Source: a virus
Strand: one strand, 5' to 3'
IMG/VR virus record: IMGVR_UViG_3300037852_000519
Location: 1 to 36,039 of that record
Length of the DNA stretch: 36,039 nt
Below, one piece after another: positions 3,525-35,367 of the stretch. The position numbers were made by a program, and so were the translations under genes. Below the pieces are notes generated by a model. It did no database searches and was not told the origin of the DNA. It saw nothing but the letters and a program-made list of their open reading frames with translations. Positions within the stretch are counted from its first letter, which is position 1. Every line of letters starts with the position of its first letter.

Positions 3525-3653
3525 CTCGTCATCGCCCGTGCAGGCATGCCCTCGCGAAGGCGGGGGCGGGCGATCCAGTAATCCGTGCCGGCGCGGCTTA
3601 GCTGCGCGGCCTCGGATTACTGGATGCCCCGCTTTCGCGGGGCATGACGAGTT
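3525..3653 (+). repeat. Family F inverted repeat (copy F1)
   Basis: The arms 'ctcgtcatcgcccg…' and '…cggggcatgacgag' are imperfect reverse complements. The middle carries 'gatccagtaatccg', mirrored by 'cggattactggat'. The same element recurs at 12593. It fills the gap between two small phage genes. Confidence 0.8.
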
Positions 3654-3669
3654 CAGAATAGGAAAGCCC

Positions 3670-3894
3670 ATGCCCGCAGCAGCTCCCGGCGCCGGCCCGC
3701 AGATCGGCCACATGGTGATCTACCGCCAGAACGGCACCACGGCCTACCCCGCCGTCATCGCCGCCGTGAACGCCAACGGCACCGTCTCGCTCACCACGTT
3801 CCCGCCCGGGCAGTCGCCCGGCACGCAGTCGAATGTGGCGCACGATTACAGCGAGAAGAAATCCGGCTGCTGGTACTACGCGCCGTATTTGTGA
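3670..3894 (+). CDS. Small hypothetical phage protein (74 aa)
   Basis: ATG at 3670 lies after AGGAAAG with 3-bp spacing to the start. The 74-residue product opens with a Pro/Ala/Gly stretch, then IGHMVIYRQNGTTAYPAVIA and a strand-turn-strand pattern ending GCWYYAPYL. The compact beta pattern resembles small phage barrel-type proteins, but no family can be named. It is same-strand with and close to the genes at 3301 and 3975. Repeat G1 begins at its stop codon. Confidence 0.65.
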   Translation: MPAAAPGAGPQIGHMVIYRQNGTTAYPAVIAAVNANGTVSLTTFPPGQSPGTQSNVAHDYSEKKSGCWYYAPYL

Positions 3895-10642: not shown

Positions 10643-10894
10643 ATGCGACGACCCGGCGGCTACGCCCGCATCGACGATCCCGATCGCGGGCGCCAAGAGT
10701 TCGACACCTTCACCTGCGCCCACTGCAACCGCGTCACGCACGTCAAGCCGAAAGCGCGGCCCGAGGACATCGGCGGCCTGTGCAAGGTCTGCATGGGGCT
10801 CATTTGCGCGGCTTGCGTCGGCGACGCCTGCGTGCCGTTCCTCCGGCGCCTCGACGAGATGGAAGCGAGAGCGCGCTTTCGCGCCGCCATTTGA
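10643..10894 (+). CDS. Small cysteine-cluster (zinc-ribbon-like) phage protein (83 aa)
   Basis: The ATG at 10643 is favoured over 10634 because the AGGAG site would be only one base from the latter. The product has a FTCAHCNRVTHVKPK knuckle and then LCKVCMGLICAACVGDAC, so three CxxC pairs plus one extra Cys in 83 residues, suggesting two zinc sites. It ends in a basic helix (FLRRLDEMEARARFRAAI). Such genes are common among phage tail-region ORFs, but their role is unknown. A diverged duplicate of its last 58 bp lies beyond the tailspike gene (12491), indicating a rearrangement here. Confidence 0.65.
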   Translation: MRRPGGYARIDDPDRGRQEFDTFTCAHCNRVTHVKPKARPEDIGGLCKVCMGLICAACVGDACVPFLRRLDEMEARARFRAAI

Positions 10895-11084
10895 ACTCGC
10901 CGCGCACGCGATGTGCCCTTGGCCACGGCACCGGCCGCCAATTCTTTTCCGCCGCGGTCGCAATTTCGCTCGCTGCCGGACGAAGTAATCCCGTATCCTC
11001 AATCCAAACGGGTTAACCACGCCCGAGCTCGTATTGGCGTCTTTCCAGCGGCCAAAAAGGGCCGGATACAGAGGAGACGACGGC

Positions 11085-12434
11085 GTGACTGACATCCTGC
11101 CGAACCCAACCGCCTTCACCAGCGGCCTGCCGTGGGCCGACGCCTCCGGCTTCAACAACGGCTCCATGGACGACGTGGCGATCAACCAGGCTATCAGCGC
11201 GCTCCAGCGCAACACCTCGACCGGTCATGGCATCGTCTACTGCCCGCCCGGGACCTACACGTTCAACAACACCGTGCAGCCCGGCAACGGCATCAGGATC
11301 ATCGGCGCCGGCAGCGGTGCCACGGTCTTCGTCGCCAATGCCGACCTGCCCTGCGTCAACCTGCAGGGGTTCGAGTCGGAGCTGTCGGACGTTGCCGTTC
11401 TCGGGTGGCGGTTCGGCACCTTGGAGGCGCTGGTGGTCGGCGCCCCTGCCGTGCGCGGCCGGCTCATCCGCGTGCGCGCCTCCGGCGGCTTCAACTGCGT
11501 CCGCGACAGCGGCGTCGACACCTACATGCAGGACTGCAAGTTCGACGAGTTCTACGGCAATTCCGCGGTTCATAAGGACGGCGGCAACTGCTTCTACGAC
11601 CGTCTCGAACTCGACTGCGGTTTTCCCCACGGGATGCCGGCGCTGCAGACCCAGTGGCAGGCGTGGCAGCCAGGCACCTATGGACCGGGATCGATCGTGA
11701 AGATGACGGGGCCGGGCGGACAGACGTACCTTCTTCAGACCCAGAACGGCGGCGCGACCGGATCGCAGCTCCCGACCATTCAGCCGTACGGCCTCCCGAC
11801 GATCGATGGCGCCGTTTCGTGGGCGCTGGTGTGCAACATCAATGCCCGCTGCCTGCACGTTCTCGATAACGCCGAACAGCTTATCGTGTCTCGTTGCGAC
11901 ATGAGTGCTGCCGGGTATTATGCCGGCATCTGGGACGAGGGTTCAGCACAGAACCTCTATCACCACAACACGATCGCCAACCAGACCATCGGCGTCTACG
12001 TGCTCGCCGGCGACGGCGATCAGTTCACCGACAACACGATTCAGCAAGGCATCCGCGGGGCCAACAATCTGACCTACGGCATCCTGTTCCAGAACACCGC
12101 CGGAGGTTCGCACGGCGTCGGCGGGAATCTGATCTACGGTTACGACGAAGGCGTCTACCTCAACGGCGCGAACGCCGGCGCGGGGACGGTCATCCACGAT
12201 AACCGCATTTTCAGCTGCGGCGAAGCCCTCCGATCGGTGTCCGGGGTCGGCGGATTCACCTTCTCGAACAACAAGTGCGGAGCCTCGTCGCGCTTCGGCG
12301 CGAACTCGGTCGCGGCGCGCGTCGACGGCGGCGGCTCCAACATCACCATGATGGGCAATGACGGCCGCGGTTCGGGGGCACCGTCGATCAACCAGTCCGG
12401 CTCCAACAACATCTTCACGCCGAACAATTGGTGA
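11085..12434 (+). CDS. Tailspike-like parallel beta-helix protein
   Basis: A GTG at 11085 behind GGAGACGACGGC is the preferred start (449 aa); the frame also runs to 11034. The N-terminal 'ADASGFNNGSMDDVAINQAI' and 'GIVYCPPGTYTFNNTVQPGN' are the opening rungs of the pectate-lyase-like right-handed beta-helix used by phage tailspikes. Later 'NLYHHNTIANQTIGVYVLAG' and 'GNLIYGYDEGVYLNG' are further rungs with N-x-I repeats. Tailspikes bind and often hydrolyse surface polysaccharide; no catalytic residues can be assigned from sequence alone. It is flanked by a 58-bp near-duplicate, suggesting it arrived as a module. Confidence 0.75.
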   Translation: MTDILPNPTAFTSGLPWADASGFNNGSMDDVAINQAISALQRNTSTGHGIVYCPPGTYTFNNTVQPGNGIRIIGAGSGATVFVANADLPCVNLQGFESELSDVAVLGWRFGTLEALVVGAPAVRGRLIRVRASGGFNCVRDSGVDTYMQDCKFDEFYGNSAVHKDGGNCFYDRLELDCGFPHGMPALQTQWQAWQPGTYGPGSIVKMTGPGGQTYLLQTQNGGATGSQLPTIQPYGLPTIDGAVSWALVCNINARCLHVLDNAEQLIVSRCDMSAAGYYAGIWDEGSAQNLYHHNTIANQTIGVYVLAGDGDQFTDNTIQQGIRGANNLTYGILFQNTAGGSHGVGGNLIYGYDEGVYLNGANAGAGTVIHDNRIFSCGEALRSVSGVGGFTFSNNKCGASSRFGANSVAARVDGGGSNITMMGNDGRGSGAPSINQSGSNNIFTPNNW

Positions 12435-20541: not shown

Positions 20542-21021
20542 ATGCCCGATCCGCATCCGCTCCGCCTCGACCGCTCGCGCTATCATTCGTCGATCCACGG
20601 CGACTTCGACAGCAACGTCCGTTTCTATCAGGACGGTCTGCCGTTCGACGCCCACGGTCATCTGTGCGTCGAGTACTGCAGCGCCGAGCGGCTCACCAAG
20701 GCCGAGGCCAAGGCGCCGGCGCGCCAGATGTCAGATGTCGATGGTCAGATGTCGGAAGGCACCGATCCGACCTCCGACCTCCGACCTCCGGCATCCGAGG
20801 TGAACCTCGAGCTGTGGGCCAAGGGCGAGGCGCGCTATCCGCCCTTCAAGGTCTTCGCTGCCATCCGCGAGCGCTACAGCAAGAGCGTGTCCACCTTCGC
20901 CGACGCGATCGAGTTCCTGGTCAGCGACGTGAAGCTAATCCCGCAGCGCGAGGCGTCGAAGAAGCTGCTCGCCGGCGGTTCCGTTGCACCAGCAATCCCG
21001 CCACGCGAAGAAGAGGCCTAA
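20542..21021 (+). CDS. Hypothetical phage protein with in-frame repeat (159 aa)
   Basis: ATG at 20542, with GAAGGAAATCGC in front, starts a 159-residue protein. Residues about 62-86 read RQMSDVDGQMSEGTDPTSDL and come from heptamer repeat H4. The flanking parts look like one protein: an N-terminal strand region (SSIHGDFDSNVRFYQDGLPF) and a C-terminal helix (YSKSVSTFADAIEFLVSDVK). No family is recognised. Its location between head genes and the adaptor makes a minor structural or assembly role likely, but that is inference. Confidence 0.6.
   Translation: MPDPHPLRLDRSRYHSSIHGDFDSNVRFYQDGLPFDAHGHLCVEYCSAERLTKAEAKAPARQMSDVDGQMSEGTDPTSDLRPPASEVNLELWAKGEARYPPFKVFAAIRERYSKSVSTFADAIEFLVSDVKLIPQREASKKLLAGGSVAPAIPPREEEA
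20725..20799 (+). repeat. Heptamer inverted repeat H4, inside a CDS
   Basis: 'cagatgtcagatgtcgatgg', then 'tcagatgtcgg', is mirrored by 'ccgacctccgacctccgacc' and 'tccggcatccg'. It is translated in frame as MSDVDGQMSE…PTSDLRPPASE. Confidence 0.8.
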
Positions 21022-21024
21022 TCA

Positions 21025-21140
21025 CCGCCGTCACCCTGAGGTGCGCGGCGAAGCCGCGCCTCGAAGGGTGGAGTACGCACCGAGCTTGCCGCCATCCTTC
21101 GAGGCTCGCCCTTCGGGCTCGCGCCTCAGGATGACGGCGG
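21025..21140 (+). repeat. Family C inverted repeat (copy C1)
   Basis: 'ccgccgtcaccctgaggtgc' is mirrored by 'cgcctcaggatgacggcgg'. The interior has 'cctcgaagggtgg' and 'ccatccttcgagg'. Other copies are at 22111, 24399 and 30484. Confidence 0.9.
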
Positions 21141-22079: not shown

Positions 22080-22110
22080 CGGCGCGGTGTTACCTCTGGC
22101 GCAACAAACA

Positions 22111-22235
22111 CCGCCGTCATCCTGAGGCGGCCGCCGAAGGCGGCCCTCGAAGGATGGCATCACGCTCGGTGCCGGCTTCCATCCTTCGAGGCTCCCCCGG
22201 CTCAAGGCCGGGGTCGCACCTCAGGATGACGGCGG
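22111..22235 (+). repeat. Family C inverted repeat (copy C2)
   Basis: 'ccgccgtcatcctgaggcgg' is mirrored by 'cacctcaggatgacggcgg', with inner 'cctcgaaggatgg'/'ccatccttcgagg'. Confidence 0.9.
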
Positions 22236-30664: not shown

Positions 30665-31711
30665 ATGTGCTTTGGAATGACCACGACGCAGCAGACGACG
30701 AACACGCCTTCGTCGTTCGTCCAGGGCGCCGGGCAGACCGCGTTCAACTTCGCCCAGAACCTCGCCACCCAGCCCTTCAATGCGCCGCTGCTCGGCACCG
30801 CCGGCTTCACGCCCCAGCAGCTGCAATCGTTCGCGCAGGTCGGCAACCTTGCGAGCGCGCCGAACGCCGGCAATCCGTTTTACAGCACGGTCGCCAACGA
30901 TTACGCCAATTACGGCGCGGCCCCGGCCGCGAGCATCGGCGCGCCGAGCGTTCTCGGCGCGACCGTCAATCCGGCGACGGCGACGCTCAACCAATATATC
31001 GACCCGAACCTGCGGCGCGAGCTGCAGCCGACCCTCGATGCGATCACGCGGCAGGCGGCGATCGCCAAGACCGCCCCGGGCGGGGTTGGTTCGGCGGCGA
31101 CCGCCGCCGGCGCCTTCGGCGATGCGCGCCAGGGCGTCGAGAACGCCAACGTCGACGAAGCGGCCATGCGCCAGGCGGCGCAGGCGACCGGGCAGGCCTA
31201 CCAGAACGCGTTCCAGAACGCGGCCAACCTGCGCGGCATCGACATTTCCAACCTGATCGGCACCCAGACCGCCAACGCCGGCCTCAACGAGCAGGCGCTC
31301 GGGCGCGTGCTCGGCTCCGGCAACGCGCTCACCAACCTGGCGCAATACACCACCGGCACCGGCCTCAACCTCGCCCAGGCGCTCGGCCAGGCCGGCACCC
31401 AGCAGCAGCAGCTGGCGCAGCAGCAGCTCGGCAGCCTCTACAACCAGCAGCTCCAGAACCTGCTCGGGCCGTATCAGTATCAGATACCCGCGCTCAACTC
31501 GACGCTCTCCGCGCTCGCGCCGACGCAGCCGTCGACGCAAACCGTGCAGCAGCCGAACAACGCCGGATGGCAGCTCGCCGGCGCGCTCGGCGGCGCCTTG
31601 CTGGGCGGGCTCGGCACCGGCTTCGGCCAGGGCATGGGGCTCGGGACGTTCGGCAACCTGTTCGGCAGCGGCAAGGCGGGCTGGGCTTCGCAGAGCGATT
31701 CATTACCATAG
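30665..31711 (+). CDS. Internal virion / DNA-ejection protein candidate (348 aa)
   Basis: ATG at 30665 comes directly after heptamer sequence without a clear ribosome site. The 348-residue product is Ala/Gln/Asn/Gly-rich and low in charge, mostly helical, with long Gln-rich stretches (GQAGTQQQQLAQQQLGSLYN). The C-terminus is glycine-zipper-like and hydrophobic (AGALGGALLGGLGTGFGQGM), suited to membrane insertion. This style and the position as first of three similar genes fit podovirus internal virion proteins that are injected ahead of the DNA. No named family motif is seen, so the call rests on composition and order. Confidence 0.6.
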   Translation: MCFGMTTTQQTTNTPSSFVQGAGQTAFNFAQNLATQPFNAPLLGTAGFTPQQLQSFAQVGNLASAPNAGNPFYSTVANDYANYGAAPAASIGAPSVLGATVNPATATLNQYIDPNLRRELQPTLDAITRQAAIAKTAPGGVGSAATAAGAFGDARQGVENANVDEAAMRQAAQATGQAYQNAFQNAANLRGIDISNLIGTQTANAGLNEQALGRVLGSGNALTNLAQYTTGTGLNLAQALGQAGTQQQQLAQQQLGSLYNQQLQNLLGPYQYQIPALNSTLSALAPTQPSTQTVQQPNNAGWQLAGALGGALLGGLGTGFGQGMGLGTFGNLFGSGKAGWASQSDSLP

Positions 31712-31721
31712 GACGCCTGAC

Positions 31722-32609
31722 ATGGACTCCGCCTTCGGTACCGACGTGCTCGGCCTGGATTCTCTGCCGCCGTCGCCGCTCTATCCGATCGGACAGTTGC
31801 CGCCGTCGGCAGCGGCCGCGCCGGGCGGCGCCGATTCCCCATCAAGTCCGCGCCTGAGCGTGCCGCTCGCACCGCCGGCATCGGCGCTGCCTGCGTCCGC
31901 AATCGATCTCGCCCAGCAGCTTGGGACGAGCGCGCCGTCGCCGGTGACGCCCGGCCCGGGCGGCCTCGATCTCGGCCCGCTCATCCGTAGCGCCTTCACG
32001 CCGCAAGGCGGCGTGTTTGGAGCGAACACCGGACAGTTCATGTCGGCGCTCGGTGGCGGGCTCTCCTCGGCGGGACAGAATTGGAACAAGCCGGCGATGG
32101 CCGCCTTCGCGAGTGGCGCCGGCGCGGCGCTCCAGGGCGGCCAGCAGTGGCAGGCCCAACAGCAGGAGGCGAAACTCAAGGCGCTCAACGCCGCCATCGC
32201 CGCCTGGAAGACCGGCGACATGACGAGCTATCATCAAGCGCTGGCGCATTATCACGCCGCGGTGGCGCAGCAACGTTTGGCGAACTTGACGGGGCCACGC
32301 CCCGACACCCGGGTTGCCCCGCCCGCGGGCCTCGCCGCGGCAAACGCCGCAGCGTCCGCGCCCGCTCCGCAATCCCCCGGACAGGACAGCACGCCCGGGC
32401 AAGGCGCCGGCGGCGGTTCGTTTGCTCCGCCGGCGATCGTCTACGGAAGTGCACCCGCTGCCGGTTCCACCGCGCCGGCCGTGCGCCAGACCGCCGCCAC
32501 GCCGGCCGATCCGCTCGCGCAGGCGCGCGACGCCGTTGCCCGCGGCGCCCCGCGCGACGCGGTGATCGAGCGGCTGCGCGTCAACGGCATCGATCCCGCC
32601 GGTCTGTGA
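31722..32609 (+). CDS. Second putative internal virion protein (295 aa)
   Basis: ATG at 31722, 10 bp after the previous stop, starts a 295-residue Ala/Pro/Ser/Gln-rich protein. A Pro/Ala-rich first third leads to a helical middle (SALGGGLSSAGQNWNKPAMA, then QQWQAQQQEAKLKALNAAIA) and a further Pro/Ala linker; the end, DAVIERLRVNGIDPAGL, looks like a small helical tail. Spacing to both neighbours (10 and 6 bp) indicates one operon of three. The role as an injected protein is inferred from that context. Confidence 0.6.
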   Translation: MDSAFGTDVLGLDSLPPSPLYPIGQLPPSAAAAPGGADSPSSPRLSVPLAPPASALPASAIDLAQQLGTSAPSPVTPGPGGLDLGPLIRSAFTPQGGVFGANTGQFMSALGGGLSSAGQNWNKPAMAAFASGAGAALQGGQQWQAQQQEAKLKALNAAIAAWKTGDMTSYHQALAHYHAAVAQQRLANLTGPRPDTRVAPPAGLAAANAAASAPAPQSPGQDSTPGQGAGGGSFAPPAIVYGSAPAAGSTAPAVRQTAATPADPLAQARDAVARGAPRDAVIERLRVNGIDPAGL

Positions 32610-32615
32610 CGTCCC

Positions 32616-33863
32616 ATGTTCGACGATCTGATTCCATCGGCGTCGGCAGCCCCGGCGCCGGCGCCCGGTATGTTCGACGATCTCATTCCGGCAGGTGGAG
32701 CAGCCGGGGCGGCCGCCGGCGGCATGTTCGACGATCTGATTCCGGCGTCCGCTCCTTCTTCCGCTGTTGCGTTTGGTGCAAACAGCGGCGCCTCGCCACC
32801 GAGCGACGCTGGACCGAATCCGCAGACCGGCGCGGCCGGCGTCGTCCCCAGCATCCCCCGAGTCGTCGGCGAAGCGTTCGGAGCCGGCCCTGCCTTGGAT
32901 TTGCTCGACCCCGGCGTTCTTGAGCGCGGCTGGCAAGGCGCGAAGCAGGGATTTGGATCGCAGCCGCTCGGATTCTCGGACGAGAACCGGCGCAATTATC
33001 CCGTGGCCCGTTTTGCGCAGCCGTTCGTCGCGCCGATCGACGCGGCGCTGCGGCTGCCCGGCGCAATTGTCGGAGGAGGGGCGGGGCTGGGCGCCGGCAT
33101 GTATCGGGCGCATGGCGGCGGCCAAGCCGAATCCGACCGTCTCGAGCGGGATCTGAACATCCTCGGCCAGGGCGCGCTGATCGAATCGGGGATGCGACCG
33201 GCGCATACCCGTACCGTCCTCGACAATCTCGGTCGCCGCGATGGCGATGTCGGCAATTTGCCGGCGGATACGGTCAAGCAGCCCGTTGAGTCTAACGGTG
33301 ACGGTCCGCCGCCGATCTCGCTCTCGGCCGCCTCACCTGATTTCCGCGCCGGAGTGCTGCGGATCGCCGGTAAGGCATTGGAGGCCGCGCGTGGGTCGTT
33401 GCGCGACATGTTCGAGGGCGTACGTCTTGAGCCGCCGAAGCAGAACAGCGTCATCGACCTCGGTTTCGTCACGCCCGAAGGCGCGGCGCACCTTAACACG
33501 CTGTTTCGCGGGGCAGGCGTCGACCTCGACGTGAGCGGGTTCCGCCACACGGTCGATACCTATGCGGCGCAACATTCGTTCACGCGGCACGGAAGCGCCG
33601 CGAGCGAGGTGCCGCGTGGCCAAATCCCGCTCACTGCCGACGACTGGGCATCGATCCCCGATGTGCTCGCGACCCCCGATCTTGTGCGTTATCTCGGGCG
33701 TACAAGCGTCGGGCGGGAGAGCATCGGCTATTGGAAACGCGTCGACGGACACATTCTTTATGTCGAAGAAGTGCGAACCGGGCGCAGGACGCTCGCCGCA
33801 GTGTCGATGCGCAAATATCGCGCCGGCGACGCAGAGGTGCCGGGACGACCTCATGGCCCTTGA
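32616..33863 (+). CDS. Virion ejection protein with C-terminal BECR/MuF-C-like nuclease domain
   Basis: ATG at 32616 lies 6 bp after the previous stop. The N-terminus is a perfect-period tandem: MFDDLIP at residues 1, 19 and 37, each followed by an Ala/Gly/Pro spacer of 11 residues. The middle (about 80-180) has a Gly/Ala hydrophobic stretch (ALRLPGAIVGGGAGLGAGMY) suited to membrane contact. From about residue 277 a compact domain follows: SFTRHGSAASEVPRGQIPLT, DDWASIPDVLATPDLVRYLG, then ESIGYWKRVDGHILYVEEVR and TLAAVSMRKY. H-G…E…RGQ.PLT..DW..IPD, followed by a strand with EEVR and a final RKY, is the pattern I associate with phage BECR-fold nuclease domains (PBECR/MuF-C) seen in polyvalent and MuF proteins. 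RNase activity is inferred. Degenerate copies of its 3' end follow downstream. Confidence 0.7.
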   Translation: MFDDLIPSASAAPAPAPGMFDDLIPAGGAAGAAAGGMFDDLIPASAPSSAVAFGANSGASPPSDAGPNPQTGAAGVVPSIPRVVGEAFGAGPALDLLDPGVLERGWQGAKQGFGSQPLGFSDENRRNYPVARFAQPFVAPIDAALRLPGAIVGGGAGLGAGMYRAHGGGQAESDRLERDLNILGQGALIESGMRPAHTRTVLDNLGRRDGDVGNLPADTVKQPVESNGDGPPPISLSAASPDFRAGVLRIAGKALEAARGSLRDMFEGVRLEPPKQNSVIDLGFVTPEGAAHLNTLFRGAGVDLDVSGFRHTVDTYAAQHSFTRHGSAASEVPRGQIPLTADDWASIPDVLATPDLVRYLGRTSVGRESIGYWKRVDGHILYVEEVRTGRRTLAAVSMRKYRAGDAEVPGRPHGP

Positions 33864-34052
33864 GCCCCGCGTCAAACGTCCAAAACGCTTCCCGGCGGAT
33901 CAAACCTAAGCCGGCTTCCGGCTGACGGCAACCCGTCAGCGAACACCACAGCCGTTACTCGAGGCCAATCTAGACCACCAAAAATCGTCCCGCGATCACC
34001 GCGCGATCTTCCCGGGCTGCACGGGGGCACCACGGTCCTGGGAGAGCTCATC

Positions 34053-34233
34053 GACGGCGTTCTTTATGTCGAAGAAGTGCAACGGGGCGGGGACGCTCGC
34101 AGCGGAATCCGTGCGCAAGTATCGTCTGGGAAGGAGAGGTGCCGGGACGACCACATGGCCTGAGGCCCCGCGTCGTACGTTCGAAACGCTCCCCGACGCG
34201 TTGAACGTAAGCTCGCTTCCGGCCGGCGTCAAC
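34053..34233 (+). pseudogene. Degenerate copy 1 of the nuclease-domain 3' end
   Basis: 'ggcgttctttatgtcgaaga' restarts the nuclease sequence (GVLYVEEVQ). A frameshift follows; the next frame reads GTLAAESVRKYRLGRRGAG, matching RTLAAVSMRKYR of the intact gene. It ends with the same noncoding tail (gcttccggccggcgtcaac) found after the intact copy. Confidence 0.75.
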
Positions 34234-34244
34234 TCGTTGCTTGG

Positions 34245-34470
34245 TATTGGAAGCGTATCAACGGGCGCATTGTTTATATCGAAGCGGTGCGAACTGGGCG
34301 CAAGACTCTCGCCGCGGTGTCCATGCGCAAATATCAGACGGGGAGGGAAGAGGTGCCGGGACGACCACATGGCCCTGAGGCCCCGCAGTCATAACGACGC
34401 ACTTCCCGGCGACTCGAATGTAAGCCCAATTTCGCTTGGTGGCAACGCTGAGCTGAATCCACAGCCGTTG
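34245..34470 (+). pseudogene. Degenerate copy 2 of the nuclease-domain 3' end, in-frame remnant
   Basis: The frame from 34245 to TAA 34392-34394 reads YWKRINGRIVYIEAVRTGRK and then TLAAVSMRKYQTGREEVPGR, so the last 49 codons of a variant nuclease domain are intact but lack any start or upstream domain. The tail continues to about 34470. Confidence 0.8.
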
Positions 34471-34509
34471 ATCAAGCAATCCGGAGCGGTATGAGAGGCG
34501 CTGCCGGAA

Positions 34510-34556
34510 AATCTGGAGTGCCGGGAGGACCGGATGGGCCTGCGCCCCCCCGGTCA
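34510..34556 (+). pseudogene. Possible further fragment of the same cassette
   Basis: 'gagtgccgggaggaccggat' and 'gggcctgcgcccc' resemble 'gaggtgccgggacgaccaca' and 'tggccctgaggcccc' of the other copies, with more substitutions. Weak on its own. Confidence 0.4.
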
Positions 34557-34620
34557 ACGGCCGATACCGGTCCCGGCAAGTGAAAATATAAAACCGGCGT
34601 ATCGCAATGACAATGTTCCA

Positions 34621-34779
34621 GGCTCCGCTCACCGCGGAGTCCGTGCGCAAGTATCGTCTGGGAAAGATTAGGTGCCGGGACGACCGCATGGCCCTTAGGC
34701 CCCGCAGTCCCACGTCCGAAACGCACTTCCCGGCGGATCAAATTTAAGCCTGCCTCAAGCTGACGGCAACCTATCAGCG
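34621..34779 (+). pseudogene. Degenerate copy 3 of the nuclease-domain 3' end
   Basis: 'accgcggagtccgtgcgcaa' and 'gtatcgtctgggaaag' match copy 1 (TAESVRKYRLGK). The tail 'ggatcaaatttaagcctgcc', then 'agctgacggcaacc', matches the region after the intact gene (33898-33934). The stretch 33864-34857 holds these copies and no complete gene. Confidence 0.75.
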
Positions 34780-34819
34780 TAGCCACGGCGCCGATCATGC
34801 GTCGCTGCACCCACCATCC

Positions 34820-34841
34820 GGGCCGCGTTGCGGCCCTTTTT
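34820..34841 (+). terminator. Rho-independent terminator
   Basis: Stem gggccgc/gcggccc with a gtt loop, followed by five T. It would end transcription of the ejection-protein operon and the cassette remnants. It lies just in front of the HNH gene. Confidence 0.75.
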
Positions 34842-34857
34842 CATTTGCGAGAGCGCC

Positions 34858-35367
34858 GTGCAAAGCAGGCCGCGCCTGACCTACGAGCGGCTGCGCGAGA
34901 TTTTGCACTACGACCCGAAGACCGGGATATTTCGCTGGCGCCAGCGCGTGAGCTACGCCATCCAGGTCGGCGACGTGGCCGGCTCGGTGAACAAGACCAG
35001 CGGCTACCGGCTCATCCATATCGACGGCCGCAATTACAAGGCCCACCGGCTCGCCTGGCTTTATGTGACCGGCACATGGTGCCGGCCGATGGTCGACCAT
35101 CGCGACCGCAACCGGGCGAACAACCGCTGGAGCAACCTGCGCCGCGCCACCGCGTCGACCAACGCCGCCAACCGCGGACGTCCGCGCACCAACGCCTCCG
35201 GATTCAAGGGCGTGCACCGGCGCCGCGACACCGGCCAATGGCGCGCGCAGATCTGGAAGGACGGACGCGCCCGTTACCTCGGCCAGTTCGCGACCCCGCA
35301 GGCCGCTCACGACGCCTACGTCCGCGCCGCGCGGGAGCTGTTCGGCGAGTTTGCCGGGGAAGGATAG
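34858..35367 (+). CDS. HNH homing-type endonuclease with AP2 domain (169 aa)
   Basis: A GTG at 34858 is the most sensible start (the frame also opens at TTG 34828, inside the terminator). The HNH_3-type core is 'NYKAHRLAWLYVTGTWCRPM' and VDHRDRNRANNRWSNLR, with His about 63, the Asp-His pair about 80-81 and Asn about 93. An AP2-type DNA-binding domain follows (about 114-158): SGFKGVHRRRDTGQWRAQIW, then RYLGQFATPQAAHDAYVRAA. HNH-AP2 proteins are free-standing selfish endonucleases common in phages, cutting DNA and promoting their own spread. It stands alone between two hairpins, so it probably has its own transcription. Confidence 0.9.
   Translation: MQSRPRLTYERLREILHYDPKTGIFRWRQRVSYAIQVGDVAGSVNKTSGYRLIHIDGRNYKAHRLAWLYVTGTWCRPMVDHRDRNRANNRWSNLRRATASTNAANRGRPRTNASGFKGVHRRRDTGQWRAQIWKDGRARYLGQFATPQAAHDAYVRAARELFGEFAGEG

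What the first reader, a model, noticed from the sequence alone, without database searches (positions are those of the whole stretch)
33724..34779. Graveyard of 3'-end cassettes behind the nuclease gene
Behind the intact gene lie at least three (possibly four) degenerate copies of its last 50 or so codons together with a shared noncoding tail. Copy 2 keeps a clean reading frame (YWKR…YIEAVRTGRKTLAAVSMRKY). Copy 1 has a frameshift, and copy 3 retains only the last codons and tail. The pattern resembles displaced C-terminal tips in Rhs, CDI and other polymorphic toxin loci, where new tips replace old ones by recombination. In a prophage ejection protein this would be a new setting for tip exchange.
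Basis: partly seen in the sequence, partly recalled or inferred. Interest (0 to 1): 0.8.

Follow-up and report, generated by a model that had tools for sequence, protein, structure and literature searches.

The report
Swappable toxin slot in a phage
A soil phage carries, beside its DNA-injection genes, a slot where a short fixed protein start is joined to different nuclease domains in different relatives, with broken ends of earlier domains left behind the gene, much as bacterial toxin loci swap their tips.

Summary
Behind the 415-aa gene (32616-33863: three FDDLIP repeats, then a PBECR3 nuclease domain) lie four degenerate, 5'-truncated copies of its last codons plus a shared noncoding tail. 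Sister phage L059 has the same ejection-region genes and the same FDDLIP start, but joined to a different nuclease (PBECR1). The window's PBECR3 end lies stranded behind it, out of frame, followed by the ortholog of copy 1. Homology breaks just after the FDDLIP repeats and resumes near codon 359 of PBECR3. A third relative (L137, in a bacterial genome) carries FDDLIP plus an LHH DNase, a SUKH-like immunity region and an orphan LHH fragment. A fourth (G002) has no cargo gene. So the slot behaves like a polymorphic-toxin locus in a phage ejection operon. Not shown: that each of the four copies is a separately displaced tip. Copies 1 and 2 start at nearly the same codon, so tandem duplication and decay remains possible for their number. 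The window has no recognisable immunity gene, and delivery is inferred. Phage-borne variable-tip toxins (MuF) and mosaic PBECR proteins are known, so this is a new variant of a known kind.

The parts
30665..31711 (+). gene A, ejection-protein homolog upstream of the slot
   Evidence: 84% aa to L059, 70% to G002/L060, 72% to L137; relatives L063 and L065 match PHROG 4287 'DNA ejection protein' at 1.8e-25 and 5.9e-6; own match weak, 0.005
31722..32609 (+). gene B, second protein of the ejection region
   Evidence: 70% aa to L059 gene B; N-terminal part shared with G002
32616..33863 (+). live cargo gene: FDDLIP start joined to a C-terminal PBECR3 nuclease domain, 415 aa
   Evidence: Pfam PBECR3 E 9.9e-18, 64.6 bits against a cut-off of 30
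32616..32743 (+). three FDDLIP repeats at 54-nt spacing, near-identical at DNA level; left edge of the exchanged part lies just behind them
   Evidence: homology to L059 stops at window 32692 / L059 9003
33522..33824 (+). PBECR3 domain, residues 303-403
   Evidence: AlphaFold model pLDDT 88
33690..33863 (+). live tip: stretch whose ortholog is stranded behind the PBECR1 gene in L059 (10871-11011)
33864..34020 (+). noncoding tail behind the live gene, colinear with L059
   Evidence: 67-93% in 30-base steps, most steps 90% or more
34028..34237 (+). copy 1: tip end plus tail, frameshifted; ortholog present in L059 (11212-11350)
34245..34480 (+). copy 2: open frame for 44 codons, no start codon in frame near its 5' end, plus tail
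34499..34600 (+). copy 3: weak, mostly tail
34626..34795 (+). copy 4: last codons plus tail
34828..35367 (+). HNH endonuclease gene that closes the slot; same place in L059 (89% aa) and G002

Best explanation
The gene is the cargo slot of a phage ejection region. A short FDDLIP repeat start, probably a tag for packaging or ejection, stays fixed, and the rest is exchanged by recombination: PBECR3 RNase here, PBECR1 in L059, LHH DNase in L137. In L059 the incoming module joined just behind the FDDLIP repeats and cut into the old gene near codon 359, so the 3' end of the old tip stayed behind and decayed. The four window copies are most likely ends of earlier PBECR3 tips displaced in the same way. 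Shown: different tips on the same start, stranded old tip, edges of the exchanged part, no cargo gene in G002. Inferred: delivery with the phage DNA, RNase activity, and serial displacement as the source of c1-c4.
For: L059: same genes A, B and HNH; FDDLIP start with PBECR1 (PF18809 E 9.5e-7, over cut-off; 40% identity to the domain in phage BPP-1 Bbp10); then PBECR3 remnants at 10838-11350. Left break right behind FDDLIP, right break near codon 359. In the tree, live W0 pairs with L0, and c1, c4 and L1 group apart from them (support 86), so the remnants predate the split of the two phages. L137: FDDLIP with LHH (PF14411 1.4e-10), SUKH-like immunity region and an orphan LHH fragment (9e-9). 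G002: no cargo gene; its gene B ends in the module found at the C-terminus of the L059 protein (42%, 3e-17). A phage contig of another kind, L039, has a PBECR3 protein followed by an orphan end of an LPD3 domain with the same terminal motif. The remnants are 5'-truncated and keep the 3' end.
Against: Only one close sister phage covers the slot with a different tip and the stranded PBECR3 end. All four window copies are of the same type, and c1 and c2 start at about codons 370 and 371, which a duplicated unit also predicts. Selection tests on the remnants are too small to decide. No immunity gene is recognisable in the window. In L137 the LHH part is reached by reading through an overlapping small gene in another frame, so the fusion could be secondary. 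The PBECR3 model has no PDB match better than E 0.03.
Confidence: 0.7

Rival explanations
1. The four copies are tandem duplications of the gene's own 3' end that decayed in place; tip exchange in L059 happened but did not make them.
For: All copies are PBECR3 type with the same tail; c1 and c2 start at about the same codon (370-371); no foreign tip was recognised in the window.
Against: Copies diverged before the two phages split; c4 and the stranded end in L059 start elsewhere (about codons 388 and 359); c2 keeps its frame without indels while its tail has several; live-c2 dN/dS is about 0.3, though the live branch alone could lower that; L059 and L137 show displacement at work.
Confidence: 0.3
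2. The remnants are kept because they serve as homology anchors or donors for tip switching (a silent-cassette reservoir).
For: L059 shares the colinear tip end, tail and c1 (84% over about 470 bases); the window gene could itself have been rebuilt on a remnant 3' end.
Against: Remnants hold only the last ~45 codons without the helix histidine of the active site; copies carry frameshifts; no switching event was seen.
Confidence: 0.12
3. The repeats are a structured RNA or a regulatory element unrelated to tips.
For: The tail is shared by all copies and parts of it are over 90% conserved with L059.
Against: No Rfam match up to E 1; the most conserved part encodes EVPGRPHGP in the live gene; the copies keep coding sequence of the nuclease.
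Confidence: 0.05

Closest known systems
MuF polymorphic toxins of temperate phages (PMC5576092)
   Same: phage-encoded, fixed N-terminus, variable C-terminal toxin, proposed delivery with the phage
   Different: no MuF domain match here; the fixed part is a short FDDLIP repeat start in an ejection-gene slot; stranded tip ends found; a term search of that paper found no mention of orphan or displaced tips
Polyvalent proteins with PBECR domains (PMC5512222)
   Same: PBECR nuclease in a protein encoded among virion genes; mosaic domain exchange described in Helicobacter prophages; cassette-like small ORFs noted in one Verrucomicrobium locus
   Different: a small protein with one recognised domain rather than a giant multidomain one; remnants of displaced ends lie directly behind the gene
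Rhs main/orphan tip loci (PMC3967940)
   Same: live tip followed by displaced C-terminal fragments without start signals; L137 adds an immunity-like region and an orphan tip
   Different: phage ejection region instead of an Rhs gene; window copies are shorter than a full toxin domain and lack immunity genes

Membership tests
PBECR3 (PF18812) | profile match above the curated cut-off | tested here: met
   64.6 bits against 30
PBECR3 (PF18812) | helix histidine and strand serine/threonine of the BECR site | tested here: met
   H32, H37 and G38 invariant in A7, S/T before the invariant M110; their catalytic role is from PMC5512222, not tested
PBECR3 (PF18812) | RNase activity | not testable with these tools
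   needs an assay
Polymorphic toxin system | same N-terminus joined to different C-terminal toxin domains in relatives | tested here: met
   PBECR3 (window), PBECR1 (L059), LHH (L137) on FDDLIP starts
Polymorphic toxin system | displaced or orphan tips downstream | tested here: met
   L059 PBECR3 remnants; L137 orphan LHH fragment
Polymorphic toxin system | cognate immunity gene next to the toxin | tested here: not met
   none recognised behind the window gene; in L137 a SUKH-1 region at 3.4e-5, 24.9 bits against a cut-off of 25.4
Polymorphic toxin system | delivery into other cells | not testable with these tools
   inferred from the ejection-gene neighbourhood only
MuF toxins | N-terminal MuF domain | tested here: not met
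   no MuF match in the window gene or in the L059 and L137 proteins
Polyvalent proteins | large protein with two or more recognised domains encoded among virion genes | tested here: inconclusive
   among ejection genes, but only one recognised domain in 415 aa; distant relative L138 has a giant multidomain protein in the slot

The most novel reading that the evidence does not exclude
A family of phages of Bradyrhizobium-like hosts keeps a dedicated tip-exchange locus in the ejection operon, in which FDDLIP repeats and a shared 3' tail act as recombination edges and old tips persist as a record or reservoir, so that injected nucleases turn over like Rhs tips.
Probability: 0.3. Interest if true: 0.8.

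Novelty: new variant of a known kind. Interest (0 to 1): 0.62.

Why it matters
It gives a traceable record of toxin-tip replacement in a protein encoded among phage ejection genes, with edges, stranded ends and several alternative tips in one slot. That makes it possible to test how phages renew the effectors they are thought to inject, and whether host or rival defences drive it. It also points to a simple handle, the short FDDLIP start, for finding further candidates.

Tried and rejected
Single-protein scans of viral and genome collections with the live protein found no relative; alignment-based scans were needed. The tail DNA pattern found only L059 and three unrelated loci. Other PBECR3 loci: the viral ones besides L039, and those of the bacterial genomes with enough sequence downstream to test, showed no self-copies behind the gene, so the pattern is not a general trait of PBECR3. 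Structured RNA: no Rfam match. dN/dS on remnants: values below 1 but too few codons to decide. A second direct repeat flagged in the survey (21020-21140 and 22106-22235) is a palindromic intergenic element, not a gene end. Isolated phages hold no relative of gene A or of the L137 cargo protein.

Full report
What is there. The window is a 36,039-base virus record. Near its right end, gene A (30665-31711) and gene B (31722-32609) precede a 415-aa gene (32616-33863) that starts with three FDDLIP repeats and ends in a PBECR3 domain (PF18812, E 9.9e-18). Behind it lie four degenerate copies of its 3' end with a shared tail (c1-c4), then an HNH gene (34828-35367). Blastn E-values are 2e-38 (c1), 3e-43 (c2), 1e-6 (c3) and 6e-33 (c4); for c3 none of 300 shuffles reached its score. 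c2 keeps an open frame over 44 codons. The stretches upstream of c1, c2 and c4 show no significant homology to the live gene.

Neighbourhood. Gene A relatives match the PHROG family 'DNA ejection protein' (1.8e-25 and 5.9e-6), so the cargo gene lies in an ejection region. That its product is packaged and injected is inferred from this and from published work on PBECR proteins (PMC5512222).

The comparison that decides. A viral scan with gene A gave L059 (IMGVR_UViG_3300037491_000131), 84% identical in gene A. It has gene B (70%), then MFEDLIPSALAAPAPPPGLFDDLIPAS..., and further on HNH (89%). Its cargo protein carries PBECR1 (PF18809, 29.7 bits against a cut-off of 27.6), which is 40% identical to a domain of Bbp10 of phage BPP-1. 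Behind it, L059 10838-11350 aligns colinearly with window 33659-34168 at about 83%: the end of the window's live gene, its tail and c1. The stranded end matches residues 359-405 at 79% and is frameshifted before the terminal motif. DNA homology breaks right after the FDDLIP repeats (window 32692, L059 9003) and resumes near codon 359.

Other states of the slot. G002 and the matching contig L060 have genes A, B and HNH but no PBECR3 gene or copies; gene B there ends in a module found at the C-terminus of the L059 cargo protein. In a bacterial genome reached through a host clue, L137 carries gene A (72%), gene B and a 538-aa protein with FDDLIP-type repeats ending in an LHH nuclease (PF14411, 1.4e-10). 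The next ORF holds a fragment similar to the end of that LHH tip (34% over 64 aa, E 9e-9) and a SUKH-1-like region just under the curated cut-off. One caution: between FDDLIP and LHH this ORF runs over a small gene in another frame. More distant relatives have giant proteins in the slot. Separately, contig L039 has a PBECR3 protein followed by an orphan LPD3 end that shares its C-terminal motif.

History of the copies. In a tree of the copies, the live tip groups with the L059 stranded end, and c1, c4 and the second L059 remnant form another group (support 86; c2 apart). The copies are thus older than the split of the two phages, and L059 most simply lost a PBECR3 gene when PBECR1 came in. The alternative, that the window gene was rebuilt on an existing remnant, is not excluded. 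dN/dS is below 1 in all pairs (0.24 for live against the L059 end over 47 codons, 0.3 for live against c2), but the numbers are small and the live branch alone could cause part of it. c1 and c2 begin at nearly the same codon, which leaves tandem duplication open for their number.

How unusual. Among 635 ORFs of 100 fetched loci, the window gene is the only one with several downstream copies of its own 3' end at E <= 1e-12; most other hits were weak or came from repeats of another kind. Other PBECR3 genes tested showed no such copies, apart from the different case in L039.

Structure. The domain model (pLDDT 88) has helices followed by four strands; the copies cover only the last strands and not the helix histidine. 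The best PDB matches include RelE-type toxins, but only at E 0.03 or worse, so this is weak support for the BECR fold.

Literature. MuF toxins (PMC5576092) and PBECR mosaicism with cassette-like ORFs (PMC5512222) are precedents for phage-borne exchange; orphan Rhs tips (PMC3967940) are the precedent for stranded ends. My searches of the openly licensed library turned up no paper on stranded tips of phage-ejected proteins; this does not show that none exists.

Verdict. Tip exchange in an ejection-region slot is well supported. Serial displacement as the origin of all four copies is likely but not shown. New variant of a known kind.

Noticed in passing
window 21020-21140 and 22106-22235: Two palindromic intergenic repeats (CCGTCATCCTGAGG...CCTCAGGATGACGG), 78-93% alike, on either side of a virion gene; of a kind I recall from Bradyrhizobium-like chromosomes, and used here as a host clue.
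   Followed up: partly
window 32616-32743; starts of cargo proteins in L047, L039, L113, L065, L138: Proteins in this or similar slots start with short acidic, aromatic motifs, often repeated: FDDLIP, NPFDEFD, WWDEAPVVE, MGLWDELGAP, MAFEDLI. Perhaps a common packaging or ejection tag.
   Followed up: no
L039 1691-4854: PBECR3 protein with an EHIxLxG motif before and after the domain, followed by an overlapping ORF with the end of an LPD3 domain and the same motif: an independent case that looks like tip displacement.
   Followed up: partly
L137 (reverse complement 3560-3860): The long FDDLIP-LHH reading frame overlaps an intact small gene (MNTEALQHLQMARLL...) in another frame, whose homolog in L059 overlaps the end of the cargo gene and runs on behind it.
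   Followed up: partly
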